The notes under the pieces: generated by a model
Databases searched by the model: none
Told to the model about the DNA's origin: nothing
The model's input: the letters and a program-made list of their open reading frames with translations, nothing else
Made by a program: the position numbers and the translations under genes
In this document: one piece after another, positions 1,038-62,442 of the stretch
How positions within the stretch are numbered: position 1 is the stretch's first letter
How the letters are laid out: each line of letters begins with the position of its first letter
From: Gemmatimonadota bacterium
Lineage (GTDB): Bacteria > JAAXHH01
Reading direction: 5' to 3'
NCBI GenBank assembly: GCA_026705925.1
Contig: JAPOZT010000028.1
Location: 1 to 64,000, forward strand
DNA length: 64,000 bases

Positions 1038-3026
1038 ATGAATCTGTATCTCCGAGTATTATCCTACGTAAAACCCTACTGGTACTTCATGGCTGGCGCC
1101 ATGGTATGCATGGCCTGTTTCGCGCTGACCAGCAGCGCCACGGTCTGGGTAGCCCTGCCCTTTTTGCAGACCCTCTTCGGCCAGGAGACTGTGCAGACGG
1201 TTCAGGACGGGCAGGACGAGCGGCCAGGGCAGGTCGGGCCGCCGGGGCAACCAGGGCAAACAGAGCAGGCCGCCTTGCCCGGGCAGATCGGTCAGGGCGG
1301 TCAAGGCAGTCAGGGCGGGCAGCTCGACCTGGCCCAGGATTCGGCGAACCGGCTGGAGCAGCGCACCGGGATGACGGGCCTGCGCGAGACGTTGAAGGAC
1401 CGCACCAACGATCTGATCAGGCGGCCGACCAAGCAGGCGACCCTCGAGCGTCTCTGCCTGATTATTTTATTTATCCTCCTGCTCAAGAACATCAGCAGTT
1501 ACCTGCAGGCCTACCTGATGGCCTACGCCGAAAACGGGGTCATCAAAGACCTCAGGAACCACCTGTATATCCATCTGCACCGTCTCTCCCTGTCCTATTT
1601 CCACCGGGAACGCACGGGTGAGCTCATCTCTCGAGTATCCTACGATGTCATGAAGATCAACGGGACCATATCGGCCGCATTCGGTACACTCGTCAAGGAG
1701 CCCATGCTGGTGGTGGTCTTCCTCGCGATCCTCCTGATCCTCAGCTGGCAGTTGACGCTGGTCTCCCTGGTCCTGCTTCCCCTGAGCATCCTCGTCATCA
1801 CCACGGTGGGCAGGCGCCTTCGCCGGAGCAGCACGGCCTCCCAGGAGGCCATGGCCGACCTGACCTCGACGCTCCAGGAGACCGTGGCCGGCGTGCGAGT
1901 GGTCAAGGCCTTCAACATGGAGTCCTTCGAAATCGGCAAGTTCAAACGGCAGACGCAACACTACTTCCGCACGCTGCTCCGCCTGACGCACATGCACAAC
2001 CTGGCCAGCCCCGTCACGGAGATCCTGGGCGGCGTCGTGGGCCTGGCGATTCTCTGGTACGGCGGGCGGCAGGTCCTGGAAGGCGGCCTGCTGGCGCCCG
2101 AGGACTTCCTGACCTTTTTCCTGGCCCTCTTCTCCATGATGAAACCGGTCAAGGAACTTGGACAGGTGCATAACCGGATCCAGGAAGGGATCGCCGCCGC
2201 CGACCGCGTGTTTTCCGTGCTGGACACGGACCCGGAGATCACGGACGCCCCGGGTGCGGTCCCGTTGCCCGACCTGCGTCGGGAGATCCGGCTCGATCGC
2301 GTTTCCTTCCGGTACGATACGGTATCCGATCCCGCCCTGGAAGAAATCGACCTGGTGGTCCGATCGGGCGAGACCGTGGCGCTCGTGGGACCCAGCGGCG
2401 GCGGCAAGTCCACCCTGGTGGATCTCGTCGCGCGGTTCTACGATCCGACCGGAGGGCGCATCGAGATCGACGGGCAGGACCTGCGTTCGGTCACGGTGGC
2501 CTCTCTCCGGGAGAAGATGGGCATCGTTACCCAGGACGTGATCCTCTTCAACGATACGGTACGCAACAATATCGCCTACGGCGTGGCGGACATGCCCCGG
2601 GAACGGATACGGGCCGCCGCGGCCGCTGCGAACGCGGACGCCTTCATTGAGCAATTGCCCGACGGTTACAATACGTTTCTCGGGGAGCGGGGCGTGCGGC
2701 TTTCCGGGGGGCAGCGCCAGCGCATCGCCATCGCCCGGGCCATCCTGAAGGATCCCCAGATCCTCATATTCGACGAGGCCACGTCCAGTCTGGACACCGA
2801 GTCCGAGCTGCTGGTGCAGGAGGCCATCGACCGGCTGATGAAGGGCAGGACGGCCCTGGTCATCGCCCATCGCCTGTCGACGGTGCAGAAAGCGGACCGG
2901 GTGGTCGTGGTCGACCGCGGCCGGATCGTCCAGACCGGCGTCCACGCGTCGCTGGTCCAGGTAGACGGCCTGTACCGGAAGCTCTACAACCTGCAGTTCC
3001 GGGACCAGGAACCGGTCCTGGAATAA
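1038..3026 (+). CDS. MsbA-like ABC exporter (lipid/glycolipid flippase)
   Basis: A half-size ABC exporter of 662 residues: an N-terminal membrane domain followed by an ATPase domain from about residue 415. Walker A is GPSGGGKST (about residue 451), the signature is LSGGQRQRIAIARA (about 554), and Walker B is ILIFDEATS. Next to glycosyltransferases, the likely substrate is a lipid A-core or other glycolipid flipped across the inner membrane; this is inference from family and context. The loop between TM1 and TM2 (residues about 50-135) is far longer than usual and holds a Gly-Gln-Pro-rich repeat tract (GQVGPPGQPGQ and related), so it should project into the periplasm. It follows the GT4 gene by 18 nt and precedes a GT9 gene by 10 nt, suggesting one operon. 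Confidence 0.9.
   Translation: MNLYLRVLSYVKPYWYFMAGAMVCMACFALTSSATVWVALPFLQTLFGQETVQTVQDGQDERPGQVGPPGQPGQTEQAALPGQIGQGGQGSQGGQLDLAQDSANRLEQRTGMTGLRETLKDRTNDLIRRPTKQATLERLCLIILFILLLKNISSYLQAYLMAYAENGVIKDLRNHLYIHLHRLSLSYFHRERTGELISRVSYDVMKINGTISAAFGTLVKEPMLVVVFLAILLILSWQLTLVSLVLLPLSILVITTVGRRLRRSSTASQEAMADLTSTLQETVAGVRVVKAFNMESFEIGKFKRQTQHYFRTLLRLTHMHNLASPVTEILGGVVGLAILWYGGRQVLEGGLLAPEDFLTFFLALFSMMKPVKELGQVHNRIQEGIAAADRVFSVLDTDPEITDAPGAVPLPDLRREIRLDRVSFRYDTVSDPALEEIDLVVRSGETVALVGPSGGGKSTLVDLVARFYDPTGGRIEIDGQDLRSVTVASLREKMGIVTQDVILFNDTVRNNIAYGVADMPRERIRAAAAAANADAFIEQLPDGYNTFLGERGVRLSGGQRQRIAIARAILKDPQILIFDEATSSLDTESELLVQEAIDRLMKGRTALVIAHRLSTVQKADRVVVVDRGRIVQTGVHASLVQVDGLYRKLYNLQFRDQEPVLE
1206..1324 (+). 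repeat. Imperfect Gly-Gln repeat tract in the exporter loop
   Basis: Degenerate short repeats of the type GGGCAGGTC / GGGCAACCA / GGTCAGGGC encode Gly-X-X triplets (GQIGQGGQGSQGGQ). They lie in frame in the predicted periplasmic TM1-TM2 loop. This belongs with the other repeat expansions of the window. Confidence 0.75.
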
Positions 3027-3036
3027 CGGACGGCCG

Positions 3037-4212: not shown

Positions 4213-4238
4213 ACCCGGTCCGGGACGGCCTAATTCAC

Positions 4239-4267
4239 TTGACACGACGCCTGCCCGCTCATACCAT
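4239..4267 (+). promoter_or_regulatory. Sigma70-type promoter for the methyltransferase
   Basis: TTGACA (4239-4244), a 17-bp spacer, then TACCAT (4262-4267). The ORF track uses the TTG inside this -35 box as a start codon. The promoter reading instead favours a downstream ATG. Confidence 0.55.
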
Positions 4268-4313
4268 GTTGCCCGCTCAGGCGAACGCCTCCATGGCACG
4301 GGAACGGGTGAAC

Positions 4314-4814: not shown

Positions 4815-4842
4815 ACGGAAAGGGCTGAACCGGAGGACCGAC

Positions 4843-5214
4843 ATGTCTGACTCGACGGATTCAGCCGGCAGCAAAGGCACCGCACCGGATTCAGCCGGTA
4901 GCGGGAGCGCATCGGTGGATTCAGCCGGCAGCAGGGCCGCCGCGGCGCTGCGCCGCTACTGGCGGGCCAACATCCGGATCATGGCCGTGCTGCTCGGACT
5001 CTGGGCCCTGGCCGGCCTGGGAGCCGGCATCCTGTTCGCGGACACGCTCAACGCGTACCGCATATCCGGCACCGGCTTTCCCCTCGGGTTCTGGTTCGCC
5101 CACCAGGGCAGCATCATCGTGTTCGTGCTGCTCATACTGGCCTACTGCCTGTACATGAACCGCCTGGACAACCGGCACCGCCGGGAACTCGAAACCACCA
5201 GGCAGGAAGGGTAG
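4843..5214 (+). CDS. DUF4212 small subunit of sodium:solute symporter
   Basis: A 123-residue membrane protein of the DUF4212 type, which pairs with the large sodium:solute symporter subunit encoded next. Two transmembrane segments are visible (IRIMAVLLGLWALAGLGAGI and GSIIVFVLLILAYCLYM), with the family's FPLGFWFAHQGS between them. A GGAGG ribosome site precedes the ATG. The first 30 or so residues are a 10-residue tandem repeat (DSAGSKGTAP, DSAGSGSASV, DSAGSRAAAA) that is not part of the domain. The large subunit starts 9 nt downstream, so the two are surely co-translated. Confidence 0.9.
   Translation: MSDSTDSAGSKGTAPDSAGSGSASVDSAGSRAAAALRRYWRANIRIMAVLLGLWALAGLGAGILFADTLNAYRISGTGFPLGFWFAHQGSIIVFVLLILAYCLYMNRLDNRHRRELETTRQEG
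4857..4932 (+). repeat. 30-bp tandem repeat at start of DUF4212 gene
   Basis: GGATTCAGCCGG(C/T)AGC occurs at 4857, 4887 and 4917, an exact 30-bp period that encodes DSAGS plus five variable residues. It lies in frame in the cytoplasmic N-terminus. Confidence 0.9.
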
Positions 5215-5223
5215 CCGCGGGCG

Positions 5224-13485: not shown

Positions 13486-13522
13486 CGGACCACCGGACCA
13501 AACGGACCACCGGACCAAACGG
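13486..13522. repeat. 17-bp tandem repeat upstream of rplU
   Basis: CGGACCACCGGACCAAA occurs twice in direct tandem (13486-13502, 13503-13519), followed by the start of a third copy. It fills the gap between the RNase G stop and the L21 ribosome site. The period is not a multiple of three, unlike the repeats inside genes. Confidence 0.9.
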
Positions 13523-13538
13523 ACAAGGAGCGAAATAG

Positions 13539-14143: not shown

Positions 14144-16411
14144 ATGGCGATCGACGACGACGCCGTCGTTCGGAAGGCGAAAACCGGAATCTCCGGTTTC
14201 CTCGAGGAGCAGTTCCGCCGCGGGCTGATCGACGAAGGGCTCTACGAACAGGCCCGCCTGAACGTGCTTCCGAATCTGCGCCGCTGGTTGACCGACCCTC
14301 ACATCGGCCGGTTGTCCCCCCGGCTCGGCGACGGACTGAGAAGCGCCGTCGAAGCGGCCAGGTGGGACGAACTGGTCGAAGCCTTCGTGGACGAGATCAA
14401 GTTCGGCACGGCGGGCATACGCGGCAAAGCCGCCATGTCGGACGAAGAACTGCTGATCCTCGCCCGGGACGGCATGGACGCCCCCATCCTCAAGGGGCCG
14501 AATACCCTCAACAACATCGTTCTCCTGCTGAAGTCCACGGGCGTGGCGAAGTACGCGACCGCCCATGGACTCCTGTCCATCGTCATCGGCTATGACAGCC
14601 GGGTGGCGGGCCAGGAATTCGCCCGGCTGGTATCCGGGGTATTCCTCGCGGAGGGGCTGAAAGTCTACCTCTTCGATGAAGCCTGCCCGTATCCGGAAAT
14701 GACCTTCGCCATACCGACGCTGGGTGCCGACATGGGCATCCTGATCTCGGCGAGCCATAATGACCGAAGATATAATGGCTACAAGCTTTCCGCCGGAACG
14801 GGATCGCAGTTTTCTCCCAGGGAACGATCGGTCATCTACAACGACTACATCCGGAAGACGACCCCGGTCCAGGTAGCCCTCCAGGACTTCGATGACGCCG
14901 GTGTCGATCCGGATCACCCCGAAGACCCTCGCCGCGACGGCAACAGGCTCGTGTTCCTGGGCGGCGCCGCGCCGTTGCCCGGATTCGACTATCTCGGCCG
15001 TCCCCTCGTCGATATCCATCGGATGTACCAGGACCAGATCCGGGGATTCATATCCGATGCCGCGTTGATGAAATCGTGGGCGCCCTCCATCGGGATCGGG
15101 TACTGCGCCTTTCACGGGGCCGGACGCAAGGCCGTGCCCCGGCTGTTGAGCGATTTCGGTTTCACCCGGGTGGATGCGGTAACCCGCCACCGGTTGAACG
15201 AGCTCAACGGGCTCTTCCCCGCCTTTCAGGACCACCCGGAGCAACAACCGGACCCCGGAGATCCCACGGCGTCCGAGATCGCCGTTGACGCGTACGTCGA
15301 ACAGTACGGCGCGGGTGCCATGGAAGCGCTCGACCTGATGATCGGGACCGACCCGGATGCCGACCGTGTGGGACTCGTGGTCAAGGTCCCCCCGGCCTAC
15401 CGGAAGTACCACGACAACCGGTCCCACGTGCTGCTGTCGGCCGACGACGCATGGTCACTGCTACTCTGGTACCGCCTGGCGCAGGGTGCCGGTAGCACGC
15501 GGAACGAGAGCACGCGGGGTGGAAACGCGCAGGGCGCCGGGAACGCGCGGGCTTTTCACCCGCGGCCGGAAGAGTCGTTCATCGTGCTTTCCCACATCAC
15601 GACCGACGCGCTAGTCCGGCTCGCGCGGAAACACGGCGTCGGCGTCATCAAGACCTGGGTCGGGTTCGGCCTGATCGCCAACGCGGTCGAACGGGTGTGG
15701 GCGTGCGATGACCTGTCGGCCCCCCGGTTCAAAGATATCATCTATCATACCGAGGATATGGAGGGTATGCCCCGACGCTACAACGTGGGATGCCTGGAGC
15801 AGAGCAACGGATTCAGCATCCTGGGCGGACCGCCCGACACGGCCGCGGCCATGGGAAGCAACGGCCACGTGCGCGACAAGGACGGAGTCTTCGCCGCGAT
15901 CCTGCTCGCCGAAGTGGCGGCCTATGCCGCGTCCCATGGGACGACGGTCTACGAACTGATCGACGAACACATATACCTGGACCCCGATGTCGGGTATTTC
16001 GCCACTGACGTCGTTCCGGAGCCGCGCTGGGGAGAATTCAAGGGATTGGAAGGGCTGACGCGGAAGATCGGCATCCTGAGACGATGCGCGGAGCTGGGAC
16101 AACGCGTCCAGGACGGCGAATCCCTAACGCTGGACGGTCTCCCGGTCCGCTCATCAGAGACCTTCGTGGCGGGCAAGTACGCGGATGCGCACCAGTGGCC
16201 GGACTTTCCAGACGAGGGCATTCGATTCTATTTCGACGAGGAAAGACTCAACTATCTGACCGTGCGGCCGTCGGGTACGTCGCAGTGCCTCAGGTTCCAC
16301 ATCCAGTTGAAGGCGGAGAACCTGTCGCGAAGCGATCTGGCGCGGCAGAAGTTTGAGACCAGGATGCGTGCCCGGAGGATCATTCACGCGATGCGCGACC
16401 TGATCATGTAG
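14144..16411 (+). CDS. Phosphohexomutase (phosphoglucomutase/phosphomannomutase family)
   Basis: Converts hexose 6- and 1-phosphates, supplying sugar nucleotides for glycans. The alpha-D-phosphohexomutase motifs are present: FGTAGIRGK near the N-terminus, the phosphoserine loop LISASHNDRRYNGYK, the metal site GTDPDADR, and the phosphate-binding RPSGTSQ near the C-terminus. At 755 residues it is longer than common family members (450-600). One cause is a low-complexity insert AQGAGSTRNESTRGGNAQG before RAFHPRPEES; the N-terminal 80 residues are also extra. Specificity (glucose, mannose or glucosamine) cannot be set from sequence. Confidence 0.88.
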   Translation: MAIDDDAVVRKAKTGISGFLEEQFRRGLIDEGLYEQARLNVLPNLRRWLTDPHIGRLSPRLGDGLRSAVEAARWDELVEAFVDEIKFGTAGIRGKAAMSDEELLILARDGMDAPILKGPNTLNNIVLLLKSTGVAKYATAHGLLSIVIGYDSRVAGQEFARLVSGVFLAEGLKVYLFDEACPYPEMTFAIPTLGADMGILISASHNDRRYNGYKLSAGTGSQFSPRERSVIYNDYIRKTTPVQVALQDFDDAGVDPDHPEDPRRDGNRLVFLGGAAPLPGFDYLGRPLVDIHRMYQDQIRGFISDAALMKSWAPSIGIGYCAFHGAGRKAVPRLLSDFGFTRVDAVTRHRLNELNGLFPAFQDHPEQQPDPGDPTASEIAVDAYVEQYGAGAMEALDLMIGTDPDADRVGLVVKVPPAYRKYHDNRSHVLLSADDAWSLLLWYRLAQGAGSTRNESTRGGNAQGAGNARAFHPRPEESFIVLSHITTDALVRLARKHGVGVIKTWVGFGLIANAVERVWACDDLSAPRFKDIIYHTEDMEGMPRRYNVGCLEQSNGFSILGGPPDTAAAMGSNGHVRDKDGVFAAILLAEVAAYAASHGTTVYELIDEHIYLDPDVGYFATDVVPEPRWGEFKGLEGLTRKIGILRRCAELGQRVQDGESLTLDGLPVRSSETFVAGKYADAHQWPDFPDEGIRFYFDEERLNYLTVRPSGTSQCLRFHIQLKAENLSRSDLARQKFETRMRARRIIHAMRDLIM
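15478..15552 (+). repeat. Low-complexity insert in the phosphohexomutase gene
   Basis: Degenerate repeats (GCGCAGGGTGCCGG / GCGCAGGGCGCCGG with AGCACGCGG units) encode AQGAGSTRNESTRGG-type sequence. It is in frame and lies between conserved blocks, probably in a surface loop. Confidence 0.65.
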
Positions 16412-18384: not shown

Positions 18385-18413
18385 AATATAAAGGACCGGA
18401 TATTCGCCGGCAA
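18385..18413 (-). promoter_or_regulatory. Sigma70-type promoter for the PpiD-like gene
   Basis: Read on the minus strand: TTGCCG (18413-18408), a 17-bp spacer and TATATT (18390-18385), about 110 bp before the chosen start. Confidence 0.6.
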
Positions 18414-18454
18414 CTCATTTGTCCTGAGGCGGGCAACCAATTTGTCCTGAGGCG
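18409..18454. repeat. 23-bp tandem repeat between ppiD and rpmE
   Basis: Two copies of GGCAAC(T/C)(C/A)ATTTGTCCTGAGGCG at 18409-18431 and 18432-18454. The repeat partly overlaps the -35 of the ppiD promoter and ends 25 bp before the rpmE promoter, so copy number could influence both. Confidence 0.88.
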
Positions 18455-18478
18455 GGCCGGCAGTGGGGCAAAAGATGC

Positions 18479-20000: not shown

Positions 20001-20942
20001 ATGAACGAATTCGAATGTCCCACCGCATCGACCGTGCTCCAGGCGGTCGACTGGGCAGCCCGTAAGCTGGACGGCCCGGCGGATAAACGCGGCCAGGCGG
20101 ACCACGACGGCCCAGCGGATAAACGCGGCCGTGTCGAATCGGAACTGCTGCTCGGCGAGGTATGCACGTCGAACCGACTCGAGCTGTACCTGGATCACGA
20201 CCGGCGGCTCGACCCGGTGGAATCTTCGCGGTTTTCAGCGCTGGTCAACCGGAGAATGCGCGGTGAGCCGGTCCAGTATCTGACGGGCTGTACGGAATTC
20301 TACGGTCGCGGGTACCAGGTTTCGCCCGCCGTGCTGATCCCCCGGCCCGAGACCGAACGGCTCGTCGACCACGTGCGCCCCTGCCTGGATAAAAAAGCGT
20401 GTGTAGAATCCCCCGCGCGTTTCGCGGACGTCGGCACGGGTACCGGCGTCCTGGCGGTCACGCTCGCCCTGGAATGCCCGTTCGTGCAGGGGTACGCCAC
20501 GGATGTTTCCGATGAGGCCCTGAGGGTCGCGCGCGGGAATGCCGAAAACCTGTTGGGGGTCCGTCAAAGCCGGATCACTTTTATGCAGGGTTCGTTGCTG
20601 GCGCCCCTCGATAGGCTCGCGCCACACACCCTGGACCTGATCGTGTCCAACCCGCCTTACGTCACTTCCCGGGAAATGGACGGCCTGCCGGAGGAGGTAC
20701 GCGGGTACGAACCCCGGCTGGCGCTCCACGGCGGCGAAGACGGTCTTGAATGTCATCGCGCACTCATCGAGCAGGCGCCGGAGTACCTGAATGAAGGCGG
20801 GATGATCGCCCTGGAGATCGGCGCGGCACAGTCCGACGCGGTGACCCGCCTGATGGCGGATCGCCGCGCCTATGGGAACGTGGAGATCGTGAAGGATTAC
20901 AACGGCCTGGACCGCATCGTGTCCGCCATATACGTCGGATAA
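20001..20942 (+). CDS. prmC: Release factor glutamine N5-methyltransferase
   Basis: Methylates the glutamine of the GGQ motif in release factors using SAM. It has the SAM site FADVGTGTGVLAVTLAL and the catalytic NPPY motif in LDLIVSNPPYVTSREM (about residue 216). The 313 residues exceed the usual 280 or so because of a 12-residue tandem repeat (DGPADKRGQADH, DGPADKRGR) in the N-terminal substrate-recognition domain. It directly follows prfA, its substrate gene, and precedes proC by 29 nt. Confidence 0.95.
   Translation: MNEFECPTASTVLQAVDWAARKLDGPADKRGQADHDGPADKRGRVESELLLGEVCTSNRLELYLDHDRRLDPVESSRFSALVNRRMRGEPVQYLTGCTEFYGRGYQVSPAVLIPRPETERLVDHVRPCLDKKACVESPARFADVGTGTGVLAVTLALECPFVQGYATDVSDEALRVARGNAENLLGVRQSRITFMQGSLLAPLDRLAPHTLDLIVSNPPYVTSREMDGLPEEVRGYEPRLALHGGEDGLECHRALIEQAPEYLNEGGMIALEIGAAQSDAVTRLMADRRAYGNVEIVKDYNGLDRIVSAIYVG
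20070..20130 (+). repeat. 36-bp tandem repeat inside prmC
   Basis: GACGGCCC(G/A)GCGGATAAACG is repeated with a 36-bp period (20070-20105, then 20106-20130 partial); 24 of 25 bases match. In frame, encoding DGPADKRG. It includes the 11-mer CCAGGCGGACC, which also occurs in the murE repeat. Confidence 0.92.
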
Positions 20943-26308: not shown

Positions 26309-27863
<1,555 letters not shown>

Positions 27864-29289: not shown

Positions 29290-30432
29290 GTGTTGCATCA
29301 ACGTATAGATCTCCCACTGCTGGTCTCGTCGCTGCTCCTACTCTGCGTGGGGTCTGTCATGGTTTACAGCGCGAGTTCGGCCGTTGCCGCGGAGATGTTC
29401 TCCGGGGACAGTGGATTCTTCGTGAAACGTTACCTGGTGCGGTTGATCCTCGGGATCGTCATTCTGATCCTCTTCGCCAGCCTGAATTACCAGAAGCTGC
29501 AGAAGTGGTCCCCGATCCTGATCGTCATCGGCCTGGGGTTTCTGGCGCTCGTATTCGTTCCCGGTTTCGGGATGACCATCCGCGGAGCGACGCGTACGGT
29601 AAACCTGTTCTCCATGACGATCCAGCCCGCGGAAGGGGTCAAGATCGCCCTGGTGATCTTCCTGGCCTACTGGCTGGCCAGGCGACAGCACGTCATGGAA
29701 CGGTTTTTCACCGGTTTTCTGCCCGTGCTGGCGGTGATCGCCACCACCTGCCTGCTGATAGGGCTGCAGCCGGACTACGGCACTGCGATCGTACTGGCCG
29801 CGACCGCCTTCGCCGTGCTCTACGTCGGCCGCGCCCGGTTGCTGCACCTGGCAAGCGCCGTCGGGATCATGATCCCGGTCCTCTTCTACAAGCTGTACTC
29901 GTCCGCGCACAGCCGGGGCCGGCTCATGACCTACTTCGAACGGTTTTTCGGCAATTCCGCCGATCAGGCCCAGAACCCGCAAGGTGCGGACTACCAGTTG
30001 CAGCAGGCACTGATCGGCCTGGGTACGGGAGGCGTATTCGGGAACGGACTGGGGCAGAGCCGGCAGAAGTTCCTTTTCCTGCCCGATCCCCATACGGATT
30101 TCGTGTTCGCGGTGATCGGCGAGGAGCTCGGGTTCCTGGGGTCGGTGGCGGTATTGGGACTTTTTGTCGTCTTTGCGTGGAGAGGAGTCCGCATCGCCCG
30201 CATGGCGCCGGACGCCTTCGGGTTTTTCCTGGCATCGGGGCTGACCATGCTCATCACACTGCACGTGCTGGTGAACATCGGGGTGGTGACGGGCATGCTG
30301 CCCACCACGGGACTGCCGCTGCCCTTCCTGAGCTACGGAGGGTCCTGGCTGCTCTTCTGCATGATGAGTATCGGGATCCTGCTGAACATATCCAGAATGA
30401 CCTATCGCCGTCAGAGACTGCAGTATGACTGA
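29290..30432 (+). CDS. ftsW: Septal peptidoglycan glycosyltransferase FtsW
   Basis: A SEDS-family polymerase acting with FtsI. It starts at GTG 29290 (MLHQRIDLPLLVSSLLLLCV) and has 380 residues with about ten membrane segments. Hallmarks are VMVYSASSAVAAE after TM1, GLQPDYGTAIVL, and the C-terminal TGLPLPFLSYGGSWL. Location in the dcw cluster identifies it as FtsW, whereas the SEDS gene of the mre cluster is RodA. murC overlaps its 3' end by 8 nt. Confidence 0.94.
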   Translation: MLHQRIDLPLLVSSLLLLCVGSVMVYSASSAVAAEMFSGDSGFFVKRYLVRLILGIVILILFASLNYQKLQKWSPILIVIGLGFLALVFVPGFGMTIRGATRTVNLFSMTIQPAEGVKIALVIFLAYWLARRQHVMERFFTGFLPVLAVIATTCLLIGLQPDYGTAIVLAATAFAVLYVGRARLLHLASAVGIMIPVLFYKLYSSAHSRGRLMTYFERFFGNSADQAQNPQGADYQLQQALIGLGTGGVFGNGLGQSRQKFLFLPDPHTDFVFAVIGEELGFLGSVAVLGLFVVFAWRGVRIARMAPDAFGFFLASGLTMLITLHVLVNIGVVTGMLPTTGLPLPFLSYGGSWLLFCMMSIGILLNISRMTYRRQRLQYD

Positions 30433-36513: not shown

Positions 36514-39198
36514 ATGGCCGAGGGATTGCCCCCTCAGTACGACCCCGGAACCGTTGAGCGGAAGTGGTACGCTTTCTGGGAAGAGAACGAGTTCTTCCAC
36601 GCCGATCCGGCTTCCGGCAAGCCCCCCTATTCCATCGTCATACCCCCACCCAACATCACCGGCATACTCCACCTCGGCCACGTGCTGAACAACACGATCC
36701 AGGACGTGCTCATCCGGTTCAAGCGCATGCAGGGTTTCGAAACCCTCTGGATGCCGGGAACGGATCACGCCGGTATAGCCACGCACGTCGTCGTGGAACG
36801 GATGCTCGCGGAACAGGGCATCGACCGGGAGGAGATCGGCCGCGAGCGGTTCGTGGAAGAAGTGTGGAAATGGCGCGAGCAGTATGGCGGCACGATCATC
36901 CGCCAGTTGAAGGAACTGGGCTGTTCCTGCGACTGGGCGCGCGAGCGTTTCACCATGGACGAGGGGCTTTCCAGGGCGGTCCTCACGGTATTCATCGCAC
37001 TTTTTGAGAAGAAGATGATCTACCGGGGAAATCGCATAATCAACTGGTGTCCCCGCTGCAACACCGCCCTGTCCAACGAAGAGTCCGTACCCCGGGACGA
37101 CCAGGGATCGCTGTGGCGCATCCGGTATCCCCTGGCGGACGGCTCAGGCGGGATCAGCATCGCCACGACGAGGCCGGAGACCCTGCTCGGCGACGCGGCG
37201 GTTGCCGTCCACCCGGAGGACGAGCGGCACGCGCACCTGGTGGGCGAACAGGTCAGCCTGCCGCTGACGGACCGGTCCATCCCGATCATCGCGGACGCGG
37301 AACTGGTTGACCCGGCATTCGGCACGGGCGCCGTCAAGGTGACGCCGGCCCACGATTTCAACGATTTCATCCTCGGCAACAAGCACGATCTGCCCCAGAT
37401 CGTGATCATGGACGAGGACGGCGTGATGAACGAAGCCGCCGGCCCCGCCTACCGGGGACTGGACCGGTTCGAGTGCCGGCGCAGGGTCGTGAAGGACCTG
37501 GAAGACCTCGGCCTTCTGGAAGGAATCGAAGGTCACGTCCATGCCGTCCGCCACTGCCAGCGTTGCGATACGGTCCTCGAACCCCGGCTTTCCCGCCAGT
37601 GGTTCCTGAAGACCCGTCCGCTCGCCCGCCGTCTCCTGCGCGCCCTGGACGAAGACCGGATACCGGGCATTACCCCGGAGCACTGGGAGAAAACGTACCG
37701 CCACTGGCTCGAAAACATCGAGGACTGGTGCATTTCCCGCCAGTTGTGGTGGGGGCACCGAATCCCGGTATGGTACTGCGCATCATGCGGAAGCGTGCAC
37801 GCGGGCATCGAAGCGCCTGTGCAATGCGGCCGTTGCGGCCACGGCGTGCTGCACCAGGACGAAGACGTGCTCGACACCTGGTTTTCATCGGCCCTGTGGC
37901 CCTTTTCGACCATGGGCTGGCCGGAACGGACAGAGGAGCTTGGGACCTTCTATCCCACCTCCACGCTGGTCACCGGCCACGATATCCTGTTCTTCTGGGT
38001 CGTGCGCATGATGATGATGGGCTATGAATTCATGGACGACCGGCCCTTCGACGACGTCTATCTCACGAGCCTGGTCCGCGACATCAAGGGACGGAAACTG
38101 AGCAAGTCACTGGGCAATTCGCCCGATCCCCTGGAAGTCATGGATACCTACGGCGCGGATGCGCTGAGGTACGCCATGATGCTGATCGCGCCGCACGGAC
38201 AGGACCTGCTGTATTCCAACGAACAGGTTGAAGTGGGGCGCAATTTCGCGAACAAAATGTGGAATGCCGCACGGCTGGTGCTCATGCATCAGAAGCCGCC
38301 GGAATCCGGCCACCCGGAATCCGGCCATCCGGCTTCCGAGAACCTCTGGGACCGCTGGATCCTTTCCCGGCTGGACCGGACCGTTGATCAGGCGACGCGG
38401 TCCCTGGAGCAATATGCCTTCCACGAGACGGCGCTGCTCCTCTACGACTTCTTCTGGCACGACTACTGCGACTGGTATCTCGAAGTGATCAAGCAACGGC
38501 TCTACGACGAGACGGACGTCGTGTCCGCGGATCACGCGCGGCGCACGGCCCTGCGCGTGCTCGAGCAGACACTCAGGCTGTTTCACCCGTTCATGCCGTT
38601 CATCACCGAAGAAATCTGGCAGCATCTGAGACCCTACCTGGACGACCGGGACGCGGAACCGGCCGGCATCGTCGTCGCGCCCTGGCCGGAGACGCGTCCG
38701 AACCGGGTTCAGGAGGATGCCGAAGGGGACATACGTTACGTCCAGGAACTGATCGGGGCCATCCGGGGCGTCCGCGCCGACTTCAGAGTCCATCCTACCC
38801 AGGAGATGGCGGTACACTGCCGGGTCGCGGACTCTCGCCTGATCGAAGTGCTCTCCGGCCAGGCCCAGGCCGTCCAGTCGCTCGCCCGGTGCACGCTGGC
38901 CTTCGTCGACGATGACGAGGCCCGCCCCGCCGGTTGCGCATCCGGTGTGTTGCGGGACATGGAATTCTACATCCCGCTCAGCGGACTGATCGACCTGGAA
39001 ATCGAAACGGATCGCCTTTCCAAAGAGCGGACCCGGGTCGAGCAGGAGCTGGAAAAAGTCCGCAAGCGCCTTTCCAACGGCCAGTTCGTGCAAAAGGCGC
39101 CGGCGGATGTCGTCGAGAAGGAAAAGGACAAGCAAAACAACTACGAGGACATGATCGGCAGGCTGAATCGGAATCTCGAAATGATTTGTGCAGGATGA
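36514..39198 (+). CDS. valS: Valyl-tRNA synthetase
   Basis: A class I aminoacyl-tRNA synthetase of 894 residues charging tRNA-Val. The HIGH motif is HLGH in PPPNITGILHLGHVLNN, the KMSKS motif is KLSKS in GRKLSKSLGNSPDP, and the editing domain has TTRPETLLGDAAVAVHP. Cysteine pairs CASC and CGRC suggest a zinc knuckle. The C-terminus is the coiled-coil tRNA-binding arm (RLSKERTRVEQELEKVRKRL). A 5-residue repeat PESGH (2.8 copies) is inserted between the catalytic and anticodon-binding domains. The PHP gene overlaps its stop by 4 nt. Confidence 0.97.
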   Translation: MAEGLPPQYDPGTVERKWYAFWEENEFFHADPASGKPPYSIVIPPPNITGILHLGHVLNNTIQDVLIRFKRMQGFETLWMPGTDHAGIATHVVVERMLAEQGIDREEIGRERFVEEVWKWREQYGGTIIRQLKELGCSCDWARERFTMDEGLSRAVLTVFIALFEKKMIYRGNRIINWCPRCNTALSNEESVPRDDQGSLWRIRYPLADGSGGISIATTRPETLLGDAAVAVHPEDERHAHLVGEQVSLPLTDRSIPIIADAELVDPAFGTGAVKVTPAHDFNDFILGNKHDLPQIVIMDEDGVMNEAAGPAYRGLDRFECRRRVVKDLEDLGLLEGIEGHVHAVRHCQRCDTVLEPRLSRQWFLKTRPLARRLLRALDEDRIPGITPEHWEKTYRHWLENIEDWCISRQLWWGHRIPVWYCASCGSVHAGIEAPVQCGRCGHGVLHQDEDVLDTWFSSALWPFSTMGWPERTEELGTFYPTSTLVTGHDILFFWVVRMMMMGYEFMDDRPFDDVYLTSLVRDIKGRKLSKSLGNSPDPLEVMDTYGADALRYAMMLIAPHGQDLLYSNEQVEVGRNFANKMWNAARLVLMHQKPPESGHPESGHPASENLWDRWILSRLDRTVDQATRSLEQYAFHETALLLYDFFWHDYCDWYLEVIKQRLYDETDVVSADHARRTALRVLEQTLRLFHPFMPFITEEIWQHLRPYLDDRDAEPAGIVVAPWPETRPNRVQEDAEGDIRYVQELIGAIRGVRADFRVHPTQEMAVHCRVADSRLIEVLSGQAQAVQSLARCTLAFVDDDEARPAGCASGVLRDMEFYIPLSGLIDLEIETDRLSKERTRVEQELEKVRKRLSNGQFVQKAPADVVEKEKDKQNNYEDMIGRLNRNLEMICAG
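38299..38340 (+). repeat. 15-bp tandem repeat inside valS
   Basis: CCGGAATCCGGCCA(C/T) at 38299 and 38314 and a diverged third copy (CCGGCTTCCGAG) encode PESGH-PESGH-PASE. In frame at the hinge before the anticodon-binding domain. Confidence 0.9.
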
Positions 39199-40067
39199 GC
39201 GTCGAGTGCTATATTGATTTGCACGCCCACAGCGATTGTTCCGACGGCGTCGATACCCCGGAAGAACTCGTGTCGAAGGCCCGCGCGGCGGGCCTGTGCG
39301 CACTGGCGATTACGGACCACGACGCGGTGGACGGTGTGGAACGGGCGCGGCGCGAAACAGCCCGGCGCGAGTCGGCCGGTGACGAATCGGCCGGTGACGA
39401 ATCGGCCCTGGACCTGGAAATCGTACCCGGCGTGGAACTCAGTGCGCGGGAAGGCGATTCCGACGTGCATATCCTGGGTTACTGCTTCGATCCGGGCAAC
39501 CGGTCGTTGCTTTCGTACCTGGAGACCTTCCGGTCGCAGCGTCTGCACCGGGCGAAGGGCATCGTCCGTAAGCTGAACGACCTGGGCGTACCGCTTGAAC
39601 TGGATTCGGTCATCGCCCATGCGCAGGACGGAAAGACCAGCGTCGGCAGACCGCATATCGCCCGTGCGCTGGTGGAAAGTAATCAGGTCGATTCGATACA
39701 GGACGCCTTTACACGGTACCTGGGCAATCACGCCCCCGCGTACCTGCCAAAGGTTTTTTTCGCCGTCGAGGATGCGATCCAGGTGATCCACGACGCCGGC
39801 GGTGCGGCTGTGCTTGCCCATCCGGGGTCCCTCAGGCGGGACGAATTGATCCCCGGTTTCGTAAAGTCGGGCCTGGACGGCCTGGAGGTCATCCATCCGG
39901 ACCACTCCGGGACGGCCCGGCGCTACTACGGGCAACTGGCAGCGAAGCACGGTCTGGTGGCAACCGGCGGATCGGATTATCACGGACCCCGGGTCGACCG
40001 ATGCGGCCTTGGCGGCATGAAGGTGCCTCTGCATCATCTGACCGATCTGAAACGGATATTGGCTTGA
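39195..40067 (+). CDS. PHP-domain phosphoesterase (RNase AM/TrpH-like)
   Basis: A metal-dependent phosphoesterase of about 290 residues starting at ATG 39195, in ATGA overlap with valS; the track start 38934 lies in valS. Metal ligands of the PHP fold are visible: DLHAHSDCSDG, ITDHDAVDG, PGVELSA, LAHPGSLRRDE and SDYHGP. The family includes nucleoside 3',5'-bisphosphate phosphatases and 5'-3' exoribonucleases that finish rRNA 5' ends. Three copies of an ESAGD-type 5-residue repeat lie between the first helix and LDLEIVPGVEL. Confidence 0.88.
   Translation: MSVECYIDLHAHSDCSDGVDTPEELVSKARAAGLCALAITDHDAVDGVERARRETARRESAGDESAGDESALDLEIVPGVELSAREGDSDVHILGYCFDPGNRSLLSYLETFRSQRLHRAKGIVRKLNDLGVPLELDSVIAHAQDGKTSVGRPHIARALVESNQVDSIQDAFTRYLGNHAPAYLPKVFFAVEDAIQVIHDAGGAAVLAHPGSLRRDELIPGFVKSGLDGLEVIHPDHSGTARRYYGQLAAKHGLVATGGSDYHGPRVDRCGLGGMKVPLHHLTDLKRILA
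39369..39413 (+). repeat. 15-bp tandem repeat inside the PHP gene
   Basis: GA(G/A)TCGGCCGGTGAC at 39369 and 39384 followed by GAATCGGCCCTGGAC: three 15-bp units in frame encoding ESAGD, ESAGD, ESALD. Confidence 0.9.
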
Positions 40068-45617: not shown

Positions 45618-46451
45618 ATGCATCCCATCCTTTTTGAGATCGGTCCGTTAACCGTACGCACCTATGGCCTGCTGCTGGCCGTTTCATTCATCGCGGGGAT
45701 ACTTCTGGCGCTGAGGCGGGCCAGGGCGCGCGGCCTGAACCAGAACCAGATGGTCAACATGAGCCTGCTCATCATGCTCGCGGGCATCGTCGGCGCCAGG
45801 ATCATGTACGTCATTCCCCACTGGAACGAGTTCAGCGCGAACCCCCTCGACATCATCAGTCCCTTTCAAAGCTCCGGTTCGATCGGCCTGACCGGCCTGA
45901 CCATGTACGGCGGGTTCATCGCGGCGGTCCTGGTATCCATCCTCTACCTGCGCGTGAACCGGTTGTCCATCTGGAAGGCCTGCGACGCCTTCGCGCCGAG
46001 TATCGCGCTCGGCATCGGCGTGAGCCGCGTCGGCTGTTTCATGAACGGCTGCTGTTTCGGACTGCCCACCGAGTCCGCCCTGGGCGTGGTCTTCCCGGCG
46101 TTCAGCGCGGCGGGCTCGTTCTACCCGGACGTACCCCTGCATCCGGCCCAGCTTTACAACGCGGCGCTGGGCTTCGGTCTTTTCGGCCTTTTGATGTGGC
46201 TGGACCGCAGGCCGAGATACGACGGATTCCTCTTTGCCGTGCTGCTGATCGCCGAACCTGTAACCCGGTTCTTCGTCGATCTCTTCAGGTACTATGAATC
46301 GAGCATGACCCTGGGCAGCCTGGGCGGGGTGGCCCTGTCCGTAAACCAGGGGATCAGCCTCGTACTGATCGGCCTGGGATTCCTCCTCCTGGGATGGGCC
46401 AGGACCCGTGCGCGGCAACGCTCGTCGCGAAGCCGGTCACGTCGCGCTTAG
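45618..46451 (+). CDS. lgt: Prolipoprotein diacylglyceryl transferase
   Basis: Transfers diacylglycerol from phosphatidylglycerol to the lipobox cysteine of lipoproteins, the first step of lipoprotein maturation in the inner membrane. The 277-residue protein starts MHPILFEIGPLTVRTYGLLL and contains the family signature region GVSRVGCFMNGCCFGLPTES; about seven membrane segments. GAGGAAAG precedes the ATG. Its last codons run into the tandem-repeat region, so the C-terminal basic tail (TRARQRSSRSRSRRA) may itself be repeat-derived. Confidence 0.94.
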   Translation: MHPILFEIGPLTVRTYGLLLAVSFIAGILLALRRARARGLNQNQMVNMSLLIMLAGIVGARIMYVIPHWNEFSANPLDIISPFQSSGSIGLTGLTMYGGFIAAVLVSILYLRVNRLSIWKACDAFAPSIALGIGVSRVGCFMNGCCFGLPTESALGVVFPAFSAAGSFYPDVPLHPAQLYNAALGFGLFGLLMWLDRRPRYDGFLFAVLLIAEPVTRFFVDLFRYYESSMTLGSLGGVALSVNQGISLVLIGLGFLLLGWARTRARQRSSRSRSRRA

Positions 46452-46483
46452 TCGCACGAAGCCGGTCACGTCGCGCTTAGTCG
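46428..46483. repeat. 29-bp-spaced direct repeat at the lgt 3' end
   Basis: CGAAGCCGGTCACGTCGCGC plus TTAGTCG is found at 46428-46454 and again, identical, at 46457-46483. The lgt stop codon lies inside the first copy. Confidence 0.92.
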
Positions 46484-46552
46484 TCCCATCGCGCTTAGTC
46501 GTCCCATTGCGCTTAGTCGTCCCATTGCGCTTAGTCGTCCCATTGCGCGTAA
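46481..46552. repeat. Four 18-bp tandem repeats downstream of lgt
   Basis: TCGTCCCAT(C/T)GCGCTTAG at 46481, 46499 and 46517, with a fourth copy at 46535 diverging in its last bases. The repeats directly follow the 29-bp-spaced repeat. Confidence 0.93.
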
Positions 46553-46565
46553 TGGAACCGTGCGC

Positions 46566-46635
46566 GGCAGCCCTGACGCCCGTACCTGGATCCCACACGG
46601 CGGCCCTGACGCCCGTATTGGAACCGTGCGCGGCG
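46566..46635. repeat. Interspersed 15-16-bp repeats downstream of lgt
   Basis: GCCCTGACGCCCGTA occurs at about 46569 and 46603, and GGAACCGTGCGCGGC at about 46555 and 46620, in mosaic order. CCACACGGCGGCCC appears twice nearby. Confidence 0.75.
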
Positions 46636-46824
46636 CGGCCCCCCGTCGCACGGCGCATGAACGACCCACACGGCGGCCCCCTTTCTTCGCGCTGCCAGGT
46701 CTCCGTCAGGCCGGCGGTCGTGCCGATGGCTGCAGAACGCTTCAGGTCCCTTCACGTTTTAAATACGAGCATCCCCCGGTCCTTTTCCGACAGATAGTCG
46801 GAAGGGGACAGCCGGGCTCCAGGC

Positions 46825-46856
46825 ACGGACCGGGTCGACCGGCCCGACCGGTCCGT
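46825..46856. terminator. GC-rich hairpin upstream of comF, role unclear
   Basis: ACGGACCGGGTCG pairs with CGACCGGTCCGT except for one bulged G, around an ACCGGCC loop. There is no U-run after it, so it is only a candidate terminator or RNA structure. Confidence 0.35.
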
Positions 46857-46920
46857 ATGTTTCAATGCGCGGTCCACCCTCGGTTGTCGATCGTCCATGT
46901 CATGGTTCGAGCCGGTTTGA

Positions 46921-50179: not shown

Positions 50180-51883
50180 ATGCGTCCGGCGCGTATGCTC
50201 TTCTCCCTGATCGCCGGCCTGGCGACCGTGGCCTTCATCTCCATATCTTCTGGTCAGCCCGGCCAGCCTGGTCAGCCTGGTCAGCCTGGTCAGCCCGGCC
50301 AGCAACCCCGCAGGAATTCGGTGGGCAAGGTCATGCCTCCCGACGCCGCGCCCCTGTCCCGGCAGGTCATCCGCGTGATGAACATGGAGCCGCGCGGCCT
50401 CGACTCCGGCATACATCCCTACGACGACGAGGGGCTGATGTTGCGGCCCTTCGAAACGCTGATGTGGCGCGACGAGTTCATGCAACCCGTTCCGGGCGCG
50501 GCCGAGCGGTACGAGCGTTCCGAGGACGGCCTGACCTGGACCTTCTACCTGCGGCCCGGCGCCCGGTGGAGCGACGGAAGACCGGTCACCGCCCACGATT
50601 TCGTATACACGTTCCGGCGGAACATCGATCCCGCGTCGGCGAACATCTACGCGAACTTCTACTACGATTTCAAAAACGCCCGGGCGATCAACCTGGGGCT
50701 GATCGACGACGTCGAAGCACTGGGCGTCCGTGCGCTGGACGACCTGACCCTGGTCATCGAGACCGAACAGCCGACGCCCTATCTCCTGCATATCATATCG
50801 TTCCCGGATACCTTCCCGGCGCCGCGCTGGTCCGTGGAGAAGTACGGCCGAAAATGGACCGAGCAGGGCAAAATCGTCACCAACAGCGGCTTCAAAATGG
50901 CCGAGTGGGTCTCCGGCAGCCACATCAAGTACGTGCCGGACCCTATGTATAACGGTCCCCACAAGCCTTTTCTGGAGCAGGTCGTGCAGTTGTTTCGGGA
51001 ACCCGCGGCGGCCAATATCCTGCCCTACGAGAACGACGAAGTGGACATGGAGAGTGTCGATCTGGCGGAACTTCAACGCATCCGGAACGACCCCCGCCTC
51101 GGCAGGGAGATCGTCCGTTCGCCGAGTTACCAGACCTGGTACTTCATCTTCAGGACCCGGGAACCGCCCTTCGATGATGTCCGCGTCCGTGAAGCCTTTA
51201 CCCGCATCATCGATCGCGAATCGATCTGCCGTGTGATTCTCCAGGGTGCCGGCATCCCGGCCTACTCGATGATTCCGCCGGGATTCGACGCCTACGTGGG
51301 ACCCGCATACGAGGCGATACAGGGTTACGATCCCGAACGTGCCAGGGCGTTAATGGCAGAGGCCGGCTACCCGAGGGGACGGGGATTCCCGACCATCGAG
51401 ACCTGGTTGCGGGCGCCCAATCCCATAACCCGCCGCATCGCAGAAGCGATCCAGGGCATGTTGCGGAACCATCTCGGGGTGGGAATCACCTTCCGCAGTG
51501 CCGATATGGGTTCCTACATGAGCGCCCTGTTCGACTGGCAGATACCCCACGGGTTCATCGCCTGGGGGGCGGACTACCTGGACCCGAGGAACATGCTGGA
51601 CATGACCTGGCATTCCAGGCCGCGGGGGGCGCAGCGCCAGGACTGGGCCCATCCCGCATTCGACGATCTCGTGGACCGGGCGATCGGGGAAACCGATCCC
51701 TCCAGGCGTACGGAGATGTACCAGGAAGCCGAACGGGTCCTGGTGTCCGACTACGGCGGGGCGTTCGTCTATCATCCCATTGGTTACGGCCTGCGCAAGC
51801 CCTGGTTGAAGGGGTACTCCAGGCGGCCCGACGGGACGGTGGGAAGCCTGTTGTGGACCGAAGTCTACATCGGTGAACGCTGA
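50180..51883 (+). CDS. Family 5 extracellular solute-binding protein A
   Basis: A periplasmic peptide/oligosaccharide-binding protein (OppA/DppA type), 567 residues. An N-terminal signal sequence (MLFSLIAGLATVAFISI) is followed by a run of Gly-Gln-Pro triplets and then PPDAAPLSRQVIRVMNMEP. Family motifs are DGLTWTFYLRPGARWSDGRP and TAHDFVYTFRRNIDP. No permease or ATPase genes are adjacent, so transport components must be elsewhere or the protein acts alone. It is paralogous to the minus-strand protein at 53153-54907; both have PPDAAP after the signal region. A class V aminotransferase follows after 21 nt. Confidence 0.88.
   Translation: MRPARMLFSLIAGLATVAFISISSGQPGQPGQPGQPGQPGQQPRRNSVGKVMPPDAAPLSRQVIRVMNMEPRGLDSGIHPYDDEGLMLRPFETLMWRDEFMQPVPGAAERYERSEDGLTWTFYLRPGARWSDGRPVTAHDFVYTFRRNIDPASANIYANFYYDFKNARAINLGLIDDVEALGVRALDDLTLVIETEQPTPYLLHIISFPDTFPAPRWSVEKYGRKWTEQGKIVTNSGFKMAEWVSGSHIKYVPDPMYNGPHKPFLEQVVQLFREPAAANILPYENDEVDMESVDLAELQRIRNDPRLGREIVRSPSYQTWYFIFRTREPPFDDVRVREAFTRIIDRESICRVILQGAGIPAYSMIPPGFDAYVGPAYEAIQGYDPERARALMAEAGYPRGRGFPTIETWLRAPNPITRRIAEAIQGMLRNHLGVGITFRSADMGSYMSALFDWQIPHGFIAWGADYLDPRNMLDMTWHSRPRGAQRQDWAHPAFDDLVDRAIGETDPSRRTEMYQEAERVLVSDYGGAFVYHPIGYGLRKPWLKGYSRRPDGTVGSLLWTEVYIGER
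50252..50305 (+). repeat. Six 9-bp repeats encoding Gly-Gln-Pro triplets
   Basis: GGTCAGCC(T/C) and GGCCAGCCT units (50252-50305, last unit GGCCAGCAA) encode GQPGQPGQPGQPGQPGQ, a collagen-like tract at the expected mature N-terminus of the solute-binding protein. Confidence 0.95.
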
Positions 51884-56405: not shown

Positions 56406-56475
56406 ATTCTGATGGCCATGATCTGTTGACAACTCGCCTGGAACCCGGCGGGAATCCGGGAACGCATTACTGCCA

Positions 56476-57646: not shown

Positions 57647-57649
57647 CGC

Positions 57650-58981: not shown

Positions 58982-59040
58982 GGTACCGGGGACTTGCGGA
59001 GAGAATCAGACTTTGTCGGTGGTCGGGAGCGAATGAACCC

Positions 59041-59508: not shown

Positions 59509-59695
59509 GGGAATCCGTCGCTCCCGTCCAGGTTACTGCTTCGGTCGAGGCGCGGCGGGTGCGTGGCGCCGACGGGCGGCCGGCACGGAACTCCATCGCG
59601 CTATCTGGATACTACGGGAATCGTCGAAGCGAGTCAAACCACAATACCCGGTCGGGGTGGGCGGACAAGGAGGCCGTGCGCGGAGTTCTGGCGGG

Positions 59696-59739
59696 AAGGC
59701 CGGGCAGCCAGGCCTCACGCCCCCCGGTCCCCCGGCCTT
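59696..59739. repeat. Inverted repeat between SRPBCC and epimerase genes
   Basis: AAGGCCGGG (59696-59704) and CCCGGCCTT (59731-59739) form a 9-bp stem with a 26-nt loop in the divergent intergenic region. The 293-bp region 59509-59801 otherwise holds only the direct repeat and promoter listed next. Confidence 0.5.
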
Positions 59740-59771
59740 GACGCCGGGCGGTCTCCACGGCCTTGACACCG
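59733..59771. repeat. 25-bp-spaced direct repeat before the epimerase
   Basis: CGGCCTTGACGCCG (59733-59746) and CGGCCTTGACACCG (59758-59771) differ at one base. Each contains a TTGAC, and the second forms the candidate -35 box of the epimerase. Confidence 0.7.
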
Positions 59772-59789
59772 TGTCGCGCCGGTTTTAAC
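59763..59789 (+). promoter_or_regulatory. Weak candidate promoter for the epimerase
   Basis: TTGACA (59763-59768) is followed 15 bp later by TTTAAC (59784-59789). If real, transcription would start only a few bases before ATG 59802, giving a very short or absent leader. Confidence 0.35.
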
Positions 59790-59801
59790 TTTCGCCACAC
59801 T

Positions 59802-60719: not shown

Positions 60720-60783
60720 ACATGCCGGGCCGAACCTCCACGATGGCGGCGCCTCCAGCCTCAGAATACACCACGGAAGGGCC

Positions 60784-62442
60784 ATGAATACCGATAATCG
60801 GCAACCACCCCCGCAGCAGCAACCGGCACCCGCGGGCGCAGCACCGGCGGGCGCGACATCGGCGGGCGCATCGGCTTCAGGCGGATTCCTCGACACCATC
60901 GAGCGGGTCGGGAACCGCCTGCCGGATCCCGCGACGCTCTTCCTGATCGGCGCTCTGTTCATCATCGTCCTCTCCGACATCGCGGCGCGCGGCCAGTGGA
61001 CCGTGGTCCAGCGCCTGCCGGAACAGGTGGTCCTGCCGGACGGTTCGGTCGGCGTGGAATGGCACGAGACGGGTGAGACCTTCAGGTCCACCAGCCTGCT
61101 TACCCGGGACGGCCTCTTCTGGGTCGTGGCCAACATGGTGGAGAACTTCATGCGGTTTCCGCCCCTCGGCGTCGTGCTGGTCGGGATGCTGGGCATCGGC
61201 GTGGCGGAACGGACAGGCATGATCGGTGCCCTGCTCAAGGCTTTCATGCTGGCGGTCCCGGGCCGATTGCTGACCCCGGCCATGGTCTTCATCGGCATCA
61301 TGTCGTCCATGACGCTCGACGCCGGATACGTCATACTGCCGCCCCTCGCGGCCGCGCTGTACAAGGCGGTCGGCCGGTCTCCGCTGGCCGGCCTTGCCGC
61401 GGTATTCGCGGGGGTGTCCGCGGGATTCAACGCCAACCTCTTCGTGACGGGCCTGGATCCCTTGCTGGCCGGCCTTTCCACGGCAGGGGCGCAGACGATC
61501 GACGCGGCCTATCAGGTCGCCGCCACGTGCAACTGGTATTTCATGATCGTGTCGACGGTGATCATGACCCTGGCGGGATGGCTCGTGACGGCCTGGTTCG
61601 TCGAGCGGCGCCTGGCGGGCAAGCCGCCCGAGGAAGGCGGACCCGCGCCCCCGTCGTCCGACGGTCCGGAAGAACATGCCCTGACCGCGGTGGAGAAGCG
61701 GGGCATGACCCGGGCGTCCCTGGCGTTCTGCGCTGTGCTCGCGGCCATCGTGTTCATGATCCTGTGGCCCGGCGCTCCGCTGCACGGCACCGGCAGTCTG
61801 TTCGACCGGTGGGTGGAGGCCATCGTGCCCCTGCTGCTCTTCTGTTTCATCCTGCCCGGCATCGTGTACGGGATCTCGGTAGGCGCCATCAAGAGCGACA
61901 AGGACGCGGCCAGGCTGCTCATCGAAACGATCGCCACCATGGCCCCGATCATCGTCCTGGCCTTCTTCGCCGCCCAGTTCATCGCCTACTTCCAGTATTC
62001 GGGACTCGGCCAGATGCTGGCGATGGCCGGCGGCCAGGCTCTCGGCCAGGCGCAGATGCCGGCGTGGATGCTGATGATCGCCTTCATCCTCGTCACGCTG
62101 GTGTTCAACCTGCTGATCGGCTCCATGTCCGCCAAGTACGCCCTCTTCGCGCCGATCTTCATTCCCATGTTCATGATGGTGGGCATCAGTCCCGAGCTGA
62201 CGCAGGCGGCCTACCGGATCGGCGACTCCGTCAGCAACACCATCACGCCCCTGAACCCCTACCTCGTGATCATCCTGGTCTTCATGCGCCAGTTCGTGCC
62301 CAAAGGGGGCATGGGCACGCTGATCTCCACGATGCTTCCCTATACCGTCGTTTTCTCGGTGATCTGGACGCTGCTTCTCGTGGTCTGGATGGCGATGGGC
62401 ATCCCCCTCGGCCCCGCGGGCGGACTGGTCTACGTACCCTGA
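60784..62442 (+). CDS. AbgT-family transporter
   Basis: A 552-residue inner-membrane transporter of the AbgT family (p-aminobenzoyl-glutamate importers; some members export sulfonamides). After a repeat-rich N-terminus (PAPAGAAPAGATSAGASAS) the family region starts GFLDTIERVGNRLPDPATLF. Conserved stretches include MTLDAGYVILPPLAAALYKA, the second-repeat region LLIGSMSAKYALFAPIFIPM and GDSVSNTITPLNPYLVIIL. A standalone gene, no abgAB peptidase nearby. Which direction and substrate is not clear. Confidence 0.92.
   Translation: MNTDNRQPPPQQQPAPAGAAPAGATSAGASASGGFLDTIERVGNRLPDPATLFLIGALFIIVLSDIAARGQWTVVQRLPEQVVLPDGSVGVEWHETGETFRSTSLLTRDGLFWVVANMVENFMRFPPLGVVLVGMLGIGVAERTGMIGALLKAFMLAVPGRLLTPAMVFIGIMSSMTLDAGYVILPPLAAALYKAVGRSPLAGLAAVFAGVSAGFNANLFVTGLDPLLAGLSTAGAQTIDAAYQVAATCNWYFMIVSTVIMTLAGWLVTAWFVERRLAGKPPEEGGPAPPSSDGPEEHALTAVEKRGMTRASLAFCAVLAAIVFMILWPGAPLHGTGSLFDRWVEAIVPLLLFCFILPGIVYGISVGAIKSDKDAARLLIETIATMAPIIVLAFFAAQFIAYFQYSGLGQMLAMAGGQALGQAQMPAWMLMIAFILVTLVFNLLIGSMSAKYALFAPIFIPMFMMVGISPELTQAAYRIGDSVSNTITPLNPYLVIILVFMRQFVPKGGMGTLISTMLPYTVVFSVIWTLLLVVWMAMGIPLGPAGGLVYVP
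60832..60876 (+). repeat. 15-bp repeat at the start of the abgT-like gene
   Basis: GCGGGCGCAGCACCG, GCGGGCGCGACATCG and GCGGGCGCATCGGCT (three 15-bp units) encode AGAAP, AGATS, AGASA in the cytoplasmic N-terminal tail. Confidence 0.85.

What the first reader, a model, noticed from the sequence alone, without database searches (positions are those of the whole stretch)
1206..60876. Window-wide short tandem-repeat insertions inside conserved housekeeping genes
At least eleven genes carry in-frame short tandem repeats: the MsbA-like exporter, DUF4212, pgm, prmC, murE, murC, ftsQ, valS, PHP, a solute-binding protein and abgT. Periods where clear are 9, 15, 30 or 36 bp, all multiples of three, and every insert falls in a predicted loop, linker or terminus. 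Between genes the same kind of repeat has periods of 17, 23, 25 and 29 bp as well as 9 and 18. This fits a general repeat-generating process filtered by reading-frame selection. Such density in essential genes (murE, ftsQ, valS) in 64 kb is not usual for bacteria.
Basis: partly seen in the sequence, partly recalled or inferred. Interest (0 to 1): 0.8.

Follow-up and report, generated by a model that had tools for sequence, protein, structure and literature searches.

The report
In-frame short tandem duplications, symbiont lineage
One lineage of uncultured Latescibacterota, probably sponge-associated, keeps making short tandem DNA duplications by copying slips, and inside genes only duplications that keep the reading frame survive, so even cell-wall and protein-synthesis enzymes carry species-specific repeat insertions.

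Summary
TRF finds 12 arrays (score >=60) in the window, against 0.13 in dinucleotide shuffles and 0.22 in codon shuffles. All eleven named genes carry in-frame inserts that vary in length between sister species (e.g. FtsQ 304 aa against 280 in 11 of 12 relatives; ValS 894 against 889; the MurC tail in 9-bp steps). The feature is genome-wide and strongest in one seven-species clade of a Latescibacterota genus: 11.5 arrays/64 kb, against 4.0 in sister species, 1.5 in other phyla, 5.2 in one high-GC control genus and 2.6 in E. coli. In that clade, periods inside genes are multiples of three 96:4; in strict intergenic DNA 5:19. Duplication-type indels per 1000 substitutions are 1.08 in the clade, 0.20 in the sisters, 0.18 in the control genus. 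Sister species often hold short direct repeats at exactly the duplication distance. Units are locus-private; no mobile element and no Ku was found. MutS, RecJ and XseA are kept; SbcCD is missing from the whole genus. Best reading: slipped-strand duplication between short direct repeats, filtered by purifying selection, running faster in one clade. The mechanism is known; scale and placement are unusual. What accelerates it is unknown; no reads or isolates were available.

The parts
1203..1322 (+). 9-bp-unit repeats in the MsbA-like exporter gene (1038-3026); protein lengths differ between species by multiples of 3 aa (-12, -15, -18, -27)
   Evidence: TRF arrays 1209-1249 and 1289-1322; ortholog comparison
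4843..4935 (+). degenerate 30-bp unit (DSAGSxxxxx) x3 at the N-terminus of the DUF4212 symporter small subunit; 1, 2 or 3 copies in sister species
   Evidence: family
13486..13524 (.). intergenic 17-bp exact duplication before rplU; single copy in G007, G008, G010, bracketed there by direct repeat CGGAC
15440..15510 (+). 5-residue-unit insert in pgm (STRNESTRGGNAQGAGNAR), 0 to 22 extra residues by species; coordinates approximate
   Evidence: indel site 15492
18409..18457 (.). intergenic 23-bp duplication, present only in this species among those compared
20072..20130 (+). 18-bp-unit insert in prmC between the first helix and the conserved RVESELLLGE; 6-residue steps between species, sequence differs between species
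26370..26459 (+). 9/18-bp-unit insert (GCCGACCNG-like) in the N-terminal linker of MurE; length differs by multiples of 3 aa in clade A, short or absent in clade B
30425..30556 (+). MurC N-terminal tail with 9/27-bp units, starting at the ATG that overlaps the ftsW stop; 34+9n nt in ten genomes
33337..33437 (+). 36-bp unit x2.8 in ftsQ (12-aa unit), present only in this species; FtsQ is 280 aa in 11 of 12 relatives
38299..38332 (+). 15-bp unit x2.3 in valS (PESGH), loop between two helices; +5 aa only in G000 and G005
39368..39407 (+). 15-bp VNTR (ESARR/ESAGD) in the PHP-domain gene; absent in clade B, several copies in clade A
46428..46635 (.). lgt-comF spacer with units of 29, 18 (x4.2) and 33 bp; spacer differs in length and sequence between species
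50250..50303 (+). 9-bp VNTR (GQP)n after the signal sequence of an SBP_bac_5 solute-binding protein; n differs by species, absent in clade B
59717..59771 (.). intergenic 25-bp repeat
60826..60870 (+). 15-bp unit (APAGA) at the N-terminus of AbgT

Best explanation
The repeats are locus-private minisatellites born by slipped-strand (misaligned) replication or repair between short chance direct repeats 9-36 bp apart, which duplicates the intervening unit and sometimes expands it further. The process acts genome-wide on both coding and spacer DNA and runs about five times faster per substitution in one clade (clade A) of a Latescibacterota genus than in its sister species. Purifying selection removes duplications that break the frame or hit conserved cores, leaving in-frame repeats in linkers and termini of housekeeping proteins. 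Shown: lineage enrichment, frame filter, direct-repeat signature, copy-number turnover, private units. Inferred: slippage as the molecular step, a raised duplication rate rather than weaker selection as the cause, near-neutrality of the inserts.
For: Excess over shuffles. Density in clade A 11.5/64 kb against 4.0 in clade B (p=2e-7) and 3.3 in the pooled others. Frame rule 96:4 in genes against 5:19 in strict spacers. Duplication-like indels per 1000 substitutions: 1.08 clade A, 0.20 clade B, 0.18 control genus, while other indels (3.2) are not above the control genus (3.7). At 61 duplications whose sister is single-copy, the sister's longest direct repeat at exactly the duplication distance averages 5.3 nt against 2.7 at random sites (>=5 nt in 52% against 5.5%, p=4e-17). 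Units unrelated between loci and not hairpin-like. Species-specific copy numbers at the same site. Ku absent, so Ku-dependent end-joining fill-in is unlikely.
Against: Some direct repeats in sisters may be remnants of older arrays rather than causes; among 12 fresh duplications, 5 have a direct repeat of at least 5 nt. Clade-A pairs are not independent and counts in clade B and the control are small (3 and 4 events). The control genus is more diverged (88%), which lowers its duplication counts somewhat. Clade A exceeds clade B in non-duplication indels too (3.2 against 0.6), which also fits weaker selection or smaller population size. No gene difference between the clades was found.
Confidence: 0.75

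Rival explanations
1. Relaxed purifying selection: a host-associated clade with small effective population size tolerates ordinary-rate duplications that other bacteria lose.
For: The nearest published Latescibacterota MAGs are sponge-associated, and a close relative is a sponge-type bin by isolate name (reading of the name is mine); clade A also has more non-duplication indels than clade B.
Against: Spacer DNA, least selected, is also richer in clade A (21-72 against 0-32 arrays/64 kb); non-duplication indels do not exceed the control genus; frame and conserved cores are still strictly guarded.
Confidence: 0.3
2. Selected length variation: the repeats are contingency VNTRs that tune protein linkers or expression, kept for function.
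For: Same sites hold different repeats in different species (prmC, murE, MurC tail).
Against: Sites are scattered over unrelated genes and spacers, include species-private inserts, and sit in less conserved positions; hardly any non-triplet arrays in genes.
Confidence: 0.1
3. Selfish insertion elements in genes, like the Rickettsia palindromic elements.
For: In-frame inserts in housekeeping genes.
Against: Units not shared between loci (about 2 of 87 above the null), no strongly enriched oligomer, no palindrome signal; many inserts are copies of the adjacent DNA.
Confidence: 0.02
4. Assembly artefacts.
For: The genomes are MAGs; no reads available.
Against: Errors would not respect codons (96:4); separate genomes show the same sites with in-frame copy-number differences.
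Confidence: 0.04

Closest known systems
Bacterial intragenic VNTRs / minisatellites (e.g. Legionella pneumophila intragenic tandem repeats, PMC2639597)
   Same: Tandem units inside genes with copy number varying between strains
   Different: The Legionella survey found 26 intragenic arrays in one genome under its own conservative criteria; here eleven genes within one 64-kb stretch, many of them housekeeping or cell-wall genes, carry them. Criteria differ, so numbers are not directly comparable
Prokaryote satellites surveyed by Subirana and Messeguer (PMC6749651)
   Same: Tandem arrays, long-period ones mostly multiples of three and coding
   Different: They report group medians of 0-3 arrays/Mb with at least four copies; this genome has about 25/Mb by a TRF criterion of at least four copies and period >=10, definitions not identical
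Rickettsia palindromic elements
   Same: In-frame inserts in conserved genes
   Different: Those are (from general knowledge) a dispersed palindromic family; units here are private and not palindromic

Membership tests
Slippage-born minisatellite / VNTR | head-to-tail copies beyond chance | tested here: met
Slippage-born minisatellite / VNTR | copy number varies between related genomes at the same site | tested here: met
Slippage-born minisatellite / VNTR | unit duplicates adjacent DNA bracketed by short direct repeats | tested here: met
   some may be relics of older arrays
Slippage-born minisatellite / VNTR | copy number varies within a species | not testable with these tools
Rickettsia-type palindromic in-gene elements | one sequence family shared by many loci | tested here: not met
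Rickettsia-type palindromic in-gene elements | palindromic unit | tested here: not met
   mean hairpin z -0.21
Ku/LigD end-joining duplications | Ku present | tested here: not met
   0 of 15 genomes of the phylum
Mismatch-repair mutator | MutS lost | tested here: not met
   two MutS-family genes in all clade A genomes (clade-B genome G004 shows only the weaker-scoring one)
Phase-variation contingency loci | in-gene units not divisible by three switching expression | tested here: not met
   4 of 100, and those lie near called gene ends

The most novel reading that the evidence does not exclude
Clade A is a natural duplication mutator: a heritable change in replication or repair, on a background that has lost the SbcCD nuclease, raises the rate of 9-36 bp tandem duplications several-fold, and reshapes core proteins across the genome.
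Probability: 0.3. Interest if true: 0.7.

Novelty: new member of a known kind. Interest (0 to 1): 0.45.

Why it matters
It gives a clean natural experiment, in one phylum of uncultured bacteria, on how tandem duplications enter essential proteins: a clade with a raised duplication load beside sister species without it, with frame and conservation filters visible. If the acceleration is mutational, finding its cause would identify what normally holds short tandem duplication down. It also warns that length polymorphism in core markers from such MAGs is probably biological.

Tried and rejected
An overrepresented seed oligomer (HIP1-like): none, only about two-fold CCGGACC in spacers. Shared units or palindromes: no. 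A 9-bp clock in true spacers: lag-18 peaks appeared in spacers, but most such arrays lie in long open frames or clipped genes, and strict spacers show no triplet preference. Loss of MutS, RecJ, XseA or a Y-family polymerase: present in every genus genome tested. SbcD is absent from all 11 genus genomes tested, apart from a weak sub-threshold hit in G006, and present in 4 of 4 family and order relatives, but absent in clade B too, so it cannot alone explain the acceleration. DnaQ by TIGR00573 is not found in the genus, but also not in G013 and G014. AlphaFold of PrmC failed (pLDDT 36); of ValS partly usable. Literature searches found no report on this lineage's repeats, within an open-access library only.

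Full report
What and where. The window is contig C37 of a 3.77-Mb MAG (93.96% complete). FtsZ relatives at 93-99% identity are MAGs filed as Candidatus Latescibacterota or Gemmatimonadetes; published Latescibacterota MAGs come from sponges (PMC12993501). Eleven congeneric genomes were available. A ValS tree makes G000, G001, G002, G005, G006, G008 and G010 one clade (100/99; 'clade A'); G003, G004, G007, G009 and G011 are the sister species ('clade B', a grade rather than a clade). Synteny over the window is nearly complete, at 90-92% identity within clade A and about 81-84% to clade B.

Observation. TRF arrays far exceed shuffles, and twenty other stretches of the same genome (372 kb) show the same density (12.9 against 12.0 arrays per 64 kb at score >=60), so the window is typical. 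Comparators: clade A 7.5-13.5, clade B 2.1-5.8, family relatives 2.1-3.2, sixteen genomes of other families 1.5 (2.1 at GC above 55%), Patescibacteria-dominated loci 1.1, a high-GC control genus 5.2, E. coli K-12 2.6 over 50 kb. The lineage is enriched, but not beyond all bacteria; the control genus shows that GC-rich genomes can reach about half this density.

Locus by locus. FtsQ is 280 aa in eleven of twelve relatives, including one of a different genus (283 in G003), and 304 here through a private 36-bp x2.8 array. ValS is 889 aa in ten congeners and a family relative, 894 in G000 and G005. The MurC tail begins at an ATG overlapping the ftsW stop and is 34+9n nt in all ten genomes. The PHP gene has no unit in clade B and several 15-bp units in clade A; the solute-binding protein has (GQP)n with n differing by species. 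PrmC carries 6-residue steps with different sequences at the same site, so it is a recurrent site. FtsA, FtsZ, MurB and many other genes do not vary in length.

Frame filter. Across clade A, arrays at score >=60 are 96:4 for periods divisible by three in called genes. A first spacer count (34:30) was inflated by genes that my simple caller clipped or missed. Restricting to arrays with no open frame of 150 codons gives 5:19. The four exceptions in genes lie near called gene starts or ends. Array density is several-fold higher in spacers than in genes, as expected if most coding duplications are purged.

Mechanism. In pairwise alignments, duplication-like indels per 1000 substitutions are 1.08 in clade A, 0.20 in clade B and 0.18 in the control genus (89, 3 and 4 events; pairs within a group are not independent). 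At 61 duplications with a single-copy sister, the sister carries a direct repeat at exactly the duplication distance far more often than random sites do. An example is the 17-bp spacer duplication at 13486: sisters have CGGAC at both ends of the single copy. This is the signature of slipped-strand mispairing. Units are private to their locus and not palindromic, Ku is absent from the phylum, and MutS, RecJ, XseA and Y-family polymerases are kept. SbcD and full-length SbcC are missing from the genus but present in its family and order relatives; since clade B lacks them too, this can at most be a permissive background.

Placement. Coding indels sit in positions less conserved towards clade B than random coding positions. 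The ValS insert falls between helices 569-591 and 611-632 with low confidence at 598-607, in a model whose C-terminal part is reliable and N-terminal part is not, and next to a gap in the alignment with the Thermus structure 1gax. The PrmC model is unusable.

Limits. All genomes are MAGs; no reads, no second strain. Gene calls are my own codon-usage calls. The start of MurE is uncertain. Clade B and control samples are small. What separates a raised duplication rate from weaker selection is only the spacer density and the unchanged rate of other indels relative to the control genus.

Noticed in passing
whole genus (G000-G011) against G012-G015: The SbcCD nuclease appears lost in the genus: SbcD 0 of 11 over the cut-off, 4 of 4 in family and order relatives; full-length SbcC likewise.
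   Followed up: partly
30425-30556: MurC translation appears coupled to ftsW through an ATGA overlap in all ten congeners, with a repeat tail of 34+9n nt.
   Followed up: yes
46452-46900: The lgt-comF spacer is a repeat hot spot that differs in length between species.
   Followed up: partly
50180-51883 and 53153-54907: Two diverged SBP_bac_5 paralogs in opposite orientation, also seen in relatives.
   Followed up: no
genus genomes G000-G011: DnaQ by TIGR00573 is not detected in any genus genome tested; proofreading may rest on another protein, such as the DnaE PHP domain.
   Followed up: no
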